NCBI RefSeq assembly: GCF_900143685.1
Contig: NZ_LT671675.1
Span: 223,111 to 287,110 of the forward strand
DNA length: 64,000 nucleotides
From: Parolsenella massiliensis
GTDB lineage: Bacteria > Actinomycetota > Coriobacteriia > Coriobacteriales > Atopobiaceae
Direction: 5' to 3'
Made by a program: the position numbers and the translations under genes. Position 1 is the stretch's first letter, and each line of letters begins with the position of its first letter. Of this stretch, positions 2,460-44,688 are shown piece after piece. The notes below the pieces were generated by a model. It was not told the origin of the DNA and made no database searches. It saw only the letters and a program-made list of their open reading frames with translations.

Positions 2460-3481
2460 TTCCGTTAAGAAACGTGTATTACATGCTCGCTTACGCCTTC
2501 CGCGATGTGAGGATGCTGTCAGACGCTGCTTTTGGAGATGAAGCCTTCTCTGGGGTGGAGGACATGTATTGCGAGCTCTTGCTGAGAAGCGCCAACTCGC
2601 TATTAAAACGTGGGCTTGAGACGACGACGCAAAACTGCGTGGAGAAACCGTCGAGGCCAAGAGGCAGGATTAACTTCCCACAGTCTATTCGGTGCCGAGT
2701 GCGTGGCGACCGTTCTTTGGTTTGCGAATACGATGTTACGAGTAGGGACACATATCTAAACGCGATCCTCAAGACAGCGCTTTGCTCACTCGAGAATTGC
2801 GAGATTGAGCAGAATCGGAAGAGGGGTCTGAGGCGTACCATTTCGAGGTTCTTTGAGGTGGGCGCTCTCGACCCGAAAAAGATTGAGTGGCCAGATCAAT
2901 ACCCGCGTTCTTTGGAGTGGTATCGGATCCCAATCGAGCTCAGCCGTTTGGTGCTTATGCATCGGATTCAGTCTGATGGTGGCTCTTCCGTGATGGCGGG
3001 ACTTGTCGATAGTCTGACTATGCCGCGGCTATTCGAACGCTTCGTGTTTGAATACTACAGACGCGAGCACAGGGAATGGGCCGTTTCAGCGCCGTATATA
3101 AAATGGGATATTGATGACGAGAGCACAGACTATCTTCCGATTATGAAAACCGATATTACGCTCCAGCGAGCCAGGCGCTCACTGATTGTTGACACCAAAT
3201 ACTATGAAAACGCAATGCAAGAGCACTTCGGTTCGGTCTCTCAGAGGTCGACGAACCTCTATCAGATATATACGTATGTAAAGAACTACAGAGCCTTTAG
3301 GCCGGCTCATGAGAAAGTGTCGGGCCTTTTGCTCTATGCAAAAACAGATGAGAGCACTTTGCCTGATCAGTTTTATTCAATAAGCGGGAATGAAATCGGC
3401 GTTCGAACCGTTGATCTTTCGGCTTGTTTTGACGACATACGCAAAGAGTTGGACGAAATCCCAAAACGCTATCTAAGCTAG
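2456..3481 (+). CDS. mcrC: McrC-type restriction endonuclease subunit
   Basis: Nuclease partner of McrB. The start is a GTG whose last bases overlap the mcrB stop (GTGA), giving 341 residues and implying translational coupling. The N-terminus MIPLRNVYYMLAYAFRDV is typical of the McrC family. The C-terminal half carries a PD-(D/E)xK-like nuclease core: D233 in MKTDITL, then D246-T-K248 in LIVDTKYY. The known family cleaves DNA after McrB-driven translocation; the target here is unknown. Low GC and codon use match mcrB, so the two probably arrived together. No methylase or other restriction gene is visible alongside, as expected for a type IV system. Confidence 0.9.
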   Translation: MIPLRNVYYMLAYAFRDVRMLSDAAFGDEAFSGVEDMYCELLLRSANSLLKRGLETTTQNCVEKPSRPRGRINFPQSIRCRVRGDRSLVCEYDVTSRDTYLNAILKTALCSLENCEIEQNRKRGLRRTISRFFEVGALDPKKIEWPDQYPRSLEWYRIPIELSRLVLMHRIQSDGGSSVMAGLVDSLTMPRLFERFVFEYYRREHREWAVSAPYIKWDIDDESTDYLPIMKTDITLQRARRSLIVDTKYYENAMQEHFGSVSQRSTNLYQIYTYVKNYRAFRPAHEKVSGLLLYAKTDESTLPDQFYSISGNEIGVRTVDLSACFDDIRKELDEIPKRYLS

Positions 3482-3503
3482 TTTTACGTTCTACGAAATA
3501 CGT

Positions 3504-3551
3504 CCAACGCGCGACGATATTGGCCAAATGGCCGATGACCGTGCGCGTTGG
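3504..3551. other. Stem-loop at right edge of restriction block
   Basis: CCAACGCGC at 3504-3512 pairs exactly with GCGCGTTGG at 3543-3551, and GGCC-AAAT-GGCC at 3522-3533 forms an inner stem. It follows the mcrC stop by 22 bases and has no strong T-run. It could be a terminator or a boundary structure of the acquired block. Confidence 0.5.
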
Positions 3552-5345: not shown

Positions 5346-5393
5346 CCCGCGCGTCTTGCGCCCTGTGTCAGAAACCAATAAACGGCTGCTCAG

Positions 5394-5428
5394 AGAAGCG
5401 GCGACGTCCCCGTGGCGTCGTCGCTTCT
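5394..5428 (+). terminator. Hairpin after aminotransferase
   Basis: AGAAGCGGCGACG pairs with CGTCGTCGCTTCT across a nine-base loop, with one G-T pair. There is no T-run after it, so termination is a guess from position, 48 bases after the stop. Confidence 0.4.
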
Positions 5429-5539
5429 CGCTATCAGGCGTTCAGAGAGATGTCTAGTTGAACGAGGTCAACCACCCTTGTAAATCGGCGAGCGCTGGAA
5501 TTCTGTAGGCGGTTGGATTTGCAACGGTCGCAGAAAGGT

Positions 5540-5570
5540 ATGACTGCGCAAGAAATGTGCCGGATACAAT
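5540..5570 (+). promoter_or_regulatory. Candidate promoter for alcohol dehydrogenase leader
   Basis: TACAAT at 5565-5570 is a good -10 hexamer. The upstream ATGACT at 5540-5545 is a weak -35 at 19-base spacing. If used, transcription starts near 5577 and produces a leader of about 185 bases. Confidence 0.35.
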
Positions 5571-5576
5571 TCACGT

Positions 5577-5761
5577 TGGATATCCGCGAGCAGGGGCTTT
5601 GGCGCTCGTGGTCCCAGGACGGGTTCAATGGAGGGGCTCCAGAGGCCGGTTCTGAACGTGGCCTCGCGCTTGCGAGGTCCCAAACCGGGGAGAGTCGGCG
5701 GCCCCGCGCCGTCGGACGCCGGCCACAGGGGTGGCCGGAACCATGAATTGGAGGAAACAAC
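5577..5761 (+). promoter_or_regulatory. Structured 5' leader, possible RNA regulator
   Basis: Consecutive hairpins fill the region before the dehydrogenase: CGAGC/GCTCG around 5587-5608; an outer CCGGTT (5646-5651)/AACCGG (5683-5688) enclosing a perfect CCTCGC-GCTT-GCGAGG (5662-5677); GGCGGC/GCCGTC around 5698-5714; and a perfect CCGGCCAC-AGGG-GTGGCCGG (5719-5738) that ends 13 bases before the GGAGG ribosome site. I do not recognise it as a known riboswitch class. A regulatory role is inferred from size, density of stems and closeness to the ribosome site. Confidence 0.4.
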
Positions 5762-6985
5762 ATGGGTCGTTTTACCAATCCGCGTGACCTGTACTTCGGC
5801 GAGGGTGCCCGCCACGAGGTCAAGAACCTCAAGGGCAGCAAGGCTATCATCGTCTCCGGTGGCGGCTCGATGCGCCGTGGCGGCTTCCTTCAGGACATCC
5901 AGAAGGACCTCGAGGACGCCGGCTTTGAGGTCAAGCTGTTCGAGGGCGTCGAGTCCGACCCGTCCATCGAGACGGTCATGAAGGGCGCCGAGGCCATGCG
6001 CGAGTTCGAGCCGGACTGGATCATCGCCCTCGGCGGTGGCTCCCCGATCGACGCCGCCAAGGCCATGTGGGTCTTCTACGAGTACCCCGATGAGTCCTTC
6101 GAGAACATCATCCAGCCGTTCTCCTTCCCCGAGCTGCGCCAGAAGGCCCACTTCTGCGCCATCTCCTCGACCTCCGGCACCGCTACCGAGGTCACCGCGT
6201 TCTCCGTTATCACGGACTACGCCAAGGGCATCAAGTACCCGCTGGCCGACTTCAACATCACCCCTGACGTCGCCATCGTCGACCCCGAGCTCACCTACTC
6301 CATGCCCGCCAAGCTCTGCGCCCACACCGGCATGGATGCCCTGACGCACTGCATGGAGGCCTACGTCTCCACGTTCGCGTCCATGTTCACCGACGCCAAC
6401 GCCCTGCATGGCATCCGCGAGATCGTCGAGTGGCTCCCGAAGTCCTATGAGGGCGACAAGGAGGCCCGTCAGCACATGCACGAGGCCCAGTGCATCGCCG
6501 GCATCGCCTTCTCCTCTGGTCTTCTCGGCATCGTGCACTCCATGGCCCACAAGACCGGTGCCGCCTTCGAGAACGGCCACATCATCCACGGTGCCGCCAA
6601 CGCCATGTACCTCGGCAAGGTCATCCAGTGGAACTCCAAGGACCCGCGTGCCGCCGAGCGCTACGCCTACGTCGCCAAGGAGGTCCTGCACCTTCCCGGC
6701 GAGACGAACGAGGAGCTCATCGCCGCGCTCGTCCAGAAGATCCGCGACCTCAACGACCAGCTCAACATCCCGCAGTCCATCAAGGACTACGCGAACGGCG
6801 GCGTGAAGGTCGACGCTGAGAACCCGCAGATGGTCTCCGAGGAGGAGTTCCTCGCGAAGCTCCCCGAGATCGCCGCGAACGCCGAGCAGGACGCCTGCAC
6901 GCCCGAGAACCCGCGTGAGACGAAGGCCGCCGACTTCGAGAAGATCCTCAAGGCCTGCTACTACGACACGGACATCGACTTCTAA
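5762..6985 (+). CDS. Iron-containing alcohol dehydrogenase
   Basis: A 407-residue group III (Fe-ADH) NAD(P)-dependent dehydrogenase of the butanol dehydrogenase type, which interconverts aldehydes and alcohols in fermentation. The dinucleotide-binding GGGSPIDAAKAM lies near residues 95-106. Metal ligands of the family are visible in the D-x-x-x-H pattern around MDALTHCMEAY, in GIVHSMAHKTGAAF and in GHIIHGAANA. GGAGG precedes the ATG. Codons are strongly biased to C/G-ending forms, even for this genome, which suggests high expression. The gene is alone between a structured leader and a long hairpin. Confidence 0.92.
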   Translation: MGRFTNPRDLYFGEGARHEVKNLKGSKAIIVSGGGSMRRGGFLQDIQKDLEDAGFEVKLFEGVESDPSIETVMKGAEAMREFEPDWIIALGGGSPIDAAKAMWVFYEYPDESFENIIQPFSFPELRQKAHFCAISSTSGTATEVTAFSVITDYAKGIKYPLADFNITPDVAIVDPELTYSMPAKLCAHTGMDALTHCMEAYVSTFASMFTDANALHGIREIVEWLPKSYEGDKEARQHMHEAQCIAGIAFSSGLLGIVHSMAHKTGAAFENGHIIHGAANAMYLGKVIQWNSKDPRAAERYAYVAKEVLHLPGETNEELIAALVQKIRDLNDQLNIPQSIKDYANGGVKVDAENPQMVSEEEFLAKLPEIAANAEQDACTPENPRETKAADFEKILKACYYDTDIDF

Positions 6986-7138: not shown

Positions 7139-7203
7139 GAGAGCTGCAAATCGGACACTTAGAGGGGGATAACTGCCCCTTAAGTGACCGATTTGCAGCT
7201 CTC
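7139..7203. repeat. 64-65-base inverted repeat, copy 1
   Basis: Arms of 19 bases, starting GAGAGCTGCAAATCGG and ending CCGATTTGCAGCTCTC, enclose about 27 bases. One internal mismatch. The same architecture and related sequence recur at 25962 and 36161. It lies between convergent genes. Confidence 0.85.
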
Positions 7204-44533: not shown

Positions 44534-44544
44534 GGGTGGCCTCC

Positions 44545-44678
44545 GTTTCTTCCATCCGGACTGTGACCGTTGGCCCCGGACTCTCACCGGATCAGCCGCG
44601 TATCCGCGGGTCGCGGGCTTCTGGGGGCTATCGCCTGCCCAGTTACCGCCAGTGGGGAATCTCACCCCGCCCTGAAAC
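44545..44678 (-). promoter_or_regulatory. FMN riboswitch (RFN element)
   Basis: On the minus strand the closing P1 is GTTTC/GAAAC. Hallmark segments are present in order: AGGGCGGGGTGAGATTCCCC, ACTGGCGGTAACTGGG, AGAAGCCCGCGACCCG, GATCCGGTGAGAGTCCGG and ACAGTCCGGATGGAAGAA. FMN binding should switch off ribU expression. The aptamer ends 11 bases before the start codon, so control of translation (ribosome-site sequestration) is more likely than termination. Confidence 0.95.
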
Positions 44679-44688
44679 TGACACGTCT

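What the first reader, a model, noticed from the sequence alone, without database searches (positions are those of the whole stretch)
5577..5761. Dense, unrecognised structured leader before an iron-type alcohol dehydrogenase
At least four consecutive hairpins, two of them perfect, fill about 185 bases between a -10 element and the ribosome site. Size and layout are those of a riboswitch or protein-bound leader, yet it matches no class I know. The gene appears highly expressed, so regulation by redox state, NAD(H), metal or alcohol is possible.
Basis: partly seen in the sequence, partly recalled or inferred. Interest (0 to 1): 0.6.

Follow-up and report, generated by a model that had tools for sequence, protein, structure and literature searches.

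The report
Conserved hairpin leader of alcohol-dehydrogenase gene
The stretch before this gut bacterium's alcohol-dehydrogenase gene is an RNA leader packed with hairpins; the last two hairpins are kept across a whole bacterial family although their letters keep changing, so the structure itself is selected, most likely to protect the message and shape ribosome access rather than to bind a small molecule.

Summary
Five hairpins fill 5584-5738 between TACAAT (5565-5570) and the ribosome site; two have perfect stems. Folding energy alone is unremarkable (z -1.46). Comparison is decisive. In 97 non-redundant leaders of orthologous genes, a hairpin just before the ribosome site occurs in 79 (shuffles 18%) and a tandem pair in 59 (shuffles 4%); it is present in 22 of 25 family genera, tandem in 17. 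Stems differ in sequence (55 distinct last hairpins); 14 of 15 modelled pairs change on both sides (structure-fitted alignment). The model built from relatives' leaders hit 33 of 140 family genomes, always before this gene. The three upstream hairpins of the window are supported only by one congener (p about 0.02-0.04). No Rfam family, no terminator, no CsrA. Loops are not conserved, which argues against a metabolite riboswitch. The host encodes RNase J, and no RNase E/G was detected. Best reading: an mRNA-protecting, ribosome-site-presenting leader of a strongly codon-biased gene. In Collinsella, Olsenella and another lineage, a conserved element before the hairpins could pair with the start codon or ribosome site, so translational control remains possible. 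Not experimentally tested.

The parts
5565..5570 (+). -10-like element TACAAT; likely start of transcription about 5577
   Evidence: sequence; conserved in congener G001; no consensus hit in scan
5584..5611 (+). hairpin H1 near the presumed 5' end
   Evidence: two G-C/G-U exchanges preserve its stem in G001
5615..5653 (+). hairpin H2 with inner stem TGGAG/CTCCA
   Evidence: one compensatory pair and one broken pair in its outer stem vs G001
5662..5677 (+). hairpin H3, perfect stem; sequence rewritten in congener, hairpin kept
5694..5717 (+). hairpin H4, counterpart of P1 of the family-wide tandem
   Evidence: model hit 5695-5764 of 16.4 bits, E 0.07
5719..5738 (+). hairpin H5 = P2, perfect 8 bp, 23 nt before the start codon
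   Evidence: conserved in 22 of 25 genera
5747..5757 (+). ribosome-binding site (AATTGGAGGAA), predicted mostly unpaired
   Evidence: unpaired probability 0.72, higher than in 97% of own-genome leaders
5762..6985 (+). iron-type alcohol dehydrogenase, 407 aa
   Evidence: Pfam PF00465 and PF25137; resembles the C-terminal ADH part of AdhE

Best explanation
A lineage-conserved structured 5' leader of the adh mRNA. Shown: a tandem of hairpins (P1, P2) directly before an exposed ribosome site, kept across Atopobiaceae and Coriobacteriaceae by compensatory change, hardly any conserved loop sequence, one copy per genome, always on this gene. Inferred: the hairpins shield the 5' region of an abundant mRNA from the 5'-end-dependent RNase J and keep the ribosome site free of other pairing, giving a long-lived, well-translated message. 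In the window's genus three further hairpins extend the shield to the presumed 5' end.
For: P2 in 79/97 leaders vs 87/485 shuffles; P1+P2 in 59/97 vs 19/485; P2 ends most often 21 nt before ATG, 7-bp stem, 4-nt loop. 55 distinct P2 sequences, loop composition close to control loops: structure kept, letters not. 14/15 pairs with changes on both sides, 94.5% of cells paired vs 40-50% in slid controls. In a group of relatives (L153, L155, L156) P1 lies at the presumed transcription start, the position of known 5' stabilisers. Window SD open 0.72, top 3% of own-genome leaders. ADH codon bias rank 9/305. RNase J present, no RNase E/G found. A hairpin or ribosome site at or near the 5' end stabilises long downstream mRNA regions in Bacillus, where RNase J is 5'-dependent (PMC3997798).
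Against: No half-life, 5'-end or expression data. In the own genome SD-proximal hairpins do not rise with codon bias, so this is not a general feature of highly expressed genes. P1 and P2 lie far from the presumed 5' end in many species. AUG itself is predicted mostly paired in the window (0.23-0.31 open). In other genera the SD is predicted largely paired (0.21-0.25 open in Olsenella and group g4). Conserved short elements before P1 in three lineages suggest more than passive shielding.
Confidence: 0.45

Rival explanations
1. Translational switch: P1 and P2 are the arms of a junction closed by a helix between a pyrimidine-rich element before P1 and the ribosome site or start codon; a protein, perhaps ADH itself, or a condition opens or closes it.
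For: Just before P1, Collinsella/Enorma keep GGTCC (11 of 12), Olsenella keep GTTCC, group g4 keeps a CTTCTC-like element while flanking hairpins are rewritten; these are complementary to ATGGGAC or GAGGAGTG and appear paired in several predicted folds. The leader is single-copy and gene-specific, as for autogenous control.
Against: No excess of pairing to SD/start over shuffles in 97 leaders (mean z -0.05; 4% at p<=0.05); in the window's genus pairing is weaker than in shuffles and the window SD is open.
Confidence: 0.25
2. Metabolite riboswitch, sensing NAD(H), metal or alcohol.
For: Length, position and dense structure.
Against: No conserved loop or junction sequence across orthologues; no terminator in the window leader; no Rfam match in the window or 20 related loci; hairpins are simple and serial.
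Confidence: 0.06
3. CsrA/Rsm-type protein-binding leader (hairpins with GGA/GGGG loops).
For: Weak RsmY match, 14.6 bits, E 0.3; G-rich loops in H1, H2 and H5.
Against: CsrA not found in 30 genomes including the own one, while E. coli, B. subtilis and T. maritima controls are positive; P2 loops have GG in 45% vs 41% of control loops.
Confidence: 0.02
4. Leader-peptide attenuator.
For: An ORF opens at 5628 in the leader.
Against: Its start lies in another frame relative to adh in the congener (indels), and the frame that continues through the leader there has no ATG; it runs into adh in the wrong frame; no terminator.
Confidence: 0.02
5. The window's upstream hairpins H1-H3 are by-products of a GC-rich untranslated region; only P1/P2 are selected.
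For: Folding z only -1.46; 11 of 20 changed pairs kept vs 9.5 expected; only one congener; these hairpins have no counterpart in sequence elsewhere.
Against: Congener folds into the same series; more shared pairs than simulated relatives (p 0.037 exact, 0.022 near).
Confidence: 0.2

Closest known systems
ompA-type 5' UTR mRNA stabilisers (E. coli ompA, papA; references in PMC3997798)
   Same: Hairpins in the 5' untranslated region of an mRNA, followed by a single-stranded ribosome site; P1 at the presumed transcript start in some relatives
   Different: No RNase E/G found in this host, RNase J present; in the window the leader is longer with five hairpins; no half-life data; one family-wide gene-specific lineage of leaders
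aprE leader stabiliser of Bacillus subtilis (reference in PMC3997798)
   Same: 5' stem-loop plus ribosome binding in an organism with RNase J
   Different: More hairpins, different gene and phylum; stability not measured
Autogenous ribosomal-protein leaders and the thousands of candidate leaders in human-microbiome screens (PMC8040213)
   Same: Uncharacterised structured RNA directly upstream of one gene in gut bacteria incl. Collinsella
   Different: Those named there for Collinsella precede L7/L12; the main text never mentions alcohol dehydrogenase; its supplementary tables were not searchable here
Collinsella-1 RNA (RF01700)
   Same: Structured RNA of Actinobacteria of the human gut
   Different: No Rfam match at or above threshold at any of these leaders; listed there without a gene-control role

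Membership tests
5' mRNA-stabilising leader (ompA/aprE type) | Stable hairpin(s) in the 5' leader before a free ribosome site | tested here: met
   for the window; less free SD in some relatives
5' mRNA-stabilising leader (ompA/aprE type) | Hairpin at or within a few nt of the mapped 5' end | tested here: inconclusive
   H1 starts about 7 nt after the presumed start; 5' end not mapped; no promoter consensus in scan
5' mRNA-stabilising leader (ompA/aprE type) | Leader prolongs mRNA half-life | not testable with these tools
   needs an experiment
Riboswitch | Conserved aptamer nucleotides across orthologous leaders | tested here: not met
   loops and linkers vary; no Rfam match
Riboswitch | Expression platform (terminator or SD capture) | tested here: not met
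   no terminator, SD open in window; possible SD/start capture only in other lineages
CsrA/Rsm-bound leader | CsrA encoded in the genome | tested here: not met
   0 of 30 genomes incl. own; controls positive
Autogenous or other protein-bound leader | A protein binds the leader and changes expression | not testable with these tools
   only single-copy gene specificity shown

The most novel reading that the evidence does not exclude
A family-wide regulatory RNA junction on the adh mRNA of Coriobacteriia, with a start-codon or SD-capturing helix plus two fast-evolving hairpins, bound by a dedicated protein (possibly ADH itself), setting alcohol dehydrogenase output; the window's genus has re-engineered it with extra 5' hairpins.
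Probability: 0.15. Interest if true: 0.65.

Novelty: new member of a known kind. Interest (0 to 1): 0.38.

Why it matters
It documents an uncatalogued structured mRNA leader conserved across common gut Actinobacteria (Collinsella, Olsenella and relatives) whose structure persists while the sequence is rewritten; RNA families defined by sequence-anchored alignment miss such elements (MAFFT plus RNAalifold gave no pair here). If it sets the stability or translation of the alcohol dehydrogenase, it bears on fermentation end-products in the gut, and it offers a ready-made high-output leader for genetic tools in this poorly tractable class.

Tried and rejected
Rfam at gathering and relaxed thresholds: no match, only a chance-level RsmY score. 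CsrA/Rsm: no CsrA. Terminator or attenuator: none. Leader peptide: start not in the same frame in the congener. General SD/start sequestration: no excess over shuffles. G-rich loops as a binding motif: close to control loops. General feature of codon-biased genes: no trend by quartile, although gap in both genomes and eno in one meet the same SD-proximal criterion and pfl has an interrupted hairpin there. MAFFT plus RNAalifold on diverse leaders: zero pairs because stems are mis-registered, and a first pair count on an unfitted alignment was uninformative; the covariance model solved this, at the price of an alignment that leans to the structure. Window-to-congener pair count alone: weak. Paper search for Coriobacteriia plus riboswitch: none.

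Full report
What is there. The window lies in a 2.0-Mb single-contig genome (G000) whose relatives by protein match are Olsenella, Collinsella and other Coriobacteriia. Between TACAAT (5565-5570) and the ribosome site of an iron-type alcohol dehydrogenase (5762-6985; PF00465 and PF25137; similar to the C-terminal half of AdhE) the RNA folds into five serial hairpins. Two have perfect stems. As pure folding energy this is only mildly unusual (z -1.46; 9th of 123 own-genome leaders).

Comparative test. Orthologues were collected from 80 loci and from 140 genomes of the family, and their leaders fetched, giving 97 non-redundant leaders. A fixed criterion for an SD-proximal hairpin (at least 5 bp, -7 kcal/mol or better, 3' end 9-30 nt before the start codon) is met by 79 of 97 leaders against 18% of dinucleotide shuffles; a second hairpin just upstream is also present in 59 of 97 against 4%. 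In the own genome the same criteria are met by 26% and 10% of 183 leaders (shuffles 17% and 5%). Counting by genus to limit relatedness, 22 of 25 genera have the last hairpin and 17 the tandem. The exceptions are mainly two genera (g48, g49).

Sequence changes, structure stays. There are 55 distinct last hairpins among the leaders, from CCGTCGC-GGGG-GCGACGG to CAAGCC-GAGAGA-GGCTTG. A covariance model built from ten leaders of one relative group matched 43 places in 58 sources, nearly all of them adh leaders, including the window at 5695-5764 (16.4 bits, E 0.07, weak on its own). On the resulting alignment 94.5% of cells pair, against 40-61% for slid partners here and in the unfitted alignment, and 14 of 15 pairs have changes on both sides, with 0 of 500 shuffles as high. 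That alignment is fitted to the structure, which inflates these numbers; the unfitted tests do not have this bias. Searched through 140 whole genomes the model gave 34 hits in 33 genomes; those at listed adh genes abut their start codons, and the six others were fetched and all precede the same MGRF... adh gene. It is thus a cis element of this gene.

The window's own extra hairpins. Only one congener genome exists in the collection. Its leader is 82% identical and folds independently into the same series of hairpins, although H3 is rewritten and H2 partly so. Shared pairs exceed simulated relatives (28 exact vs 11.5; 43 near vs 15.9; p 0.037 and 0.022), but counting pair by pair on the sequence alignment gives 11 kept and 9 broken, little better than the null except for fewer broken pairs (p 0.05). 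H1-H3 are therefore probable, not proven.

Mechanism. No terminator, no conserved upstream reading frame, no CsrA, no Rfam class. P2 loops show no common motif. The ribosome site of the window is predicted open (0.72, top 3% of own-genome leaders), though the start codon is not. The gene has strong codon bias (9th of 305). The genus encodes RNase J and no RNase E/G was detected; in RNase J organisms a hairpin or ribosome site near the 5' end protects long downstream regions (PMC3997798). This points to a protective, ribosome-presenting leader. The step from anatomy to mRNA protection is inference. Against a purely generic role: SD-proximal hairpins do not rise with codon bias in this genome, and the leader is tied to one gene.

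An unresolved hint. Directly before P1, Collinsella and Enorma keep GGTCC, Olsenella keep GTTCC, and group g4 keeps a CTTCTC-like element, while the hairpins beside them change. These match the start region ATGGGAC or the SD GAGGAGTG in complement, and the SD is predicted mostly closed in Olsenella and g4. A global test of such pairing over 97 leaders was negative, and the window's genus lacks it. Translational control in those lineages is thus open.

Verdict. Kind: known (structured 5' leader); this member: new as far as Rfam and the searchable papers show.

Noticed in passing
window 7139-7203: Near-perfect palindrome (28-nt arms, 89%) between the convergent adh and a HAD-like phosphatase gene; at least four further copies with the same arms (GCGCTGCAAATCGG...CACT) and variable loops lie elsewhere in this genome: a dispersed intergenic palindrome.
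   Followed up: partly
window 44540-44683 (-): FMN riboswitch, 102 bits; another FMN riboswitch sits just downstream of adh in L061 at 3345-3514.
   Followed up: no
L009 1920-2000 (relative, 99% identical ADH): The last hairpin CCGGCACGGGGGTGCCGG is present twice in tandem, as if the hairpin itself had duplicated.
   Followed up: no
L198 13430-13540 (own genome): A ribosomal-protein (rplA-like, my reading of the sequence) leader also has tandem hairpins and the same GGAGGAAACAAC ribosome site; probably a ribosomal protein L1 site.
   Followed up: no
L205/L206, pfl leaders of both congeners: Hairpin GCGCCGAGACTGCCCAGCAGCGGCGC directly before the pfl ribosome site; the apical loop differs in the congener while the stem is kept.
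   Followed up: partly
window 5393-5429: Strong inverted repeat (14-nt arms, 93%) after the upstream aminotransferase, terminator-like but without a T run.
   Followed up: no
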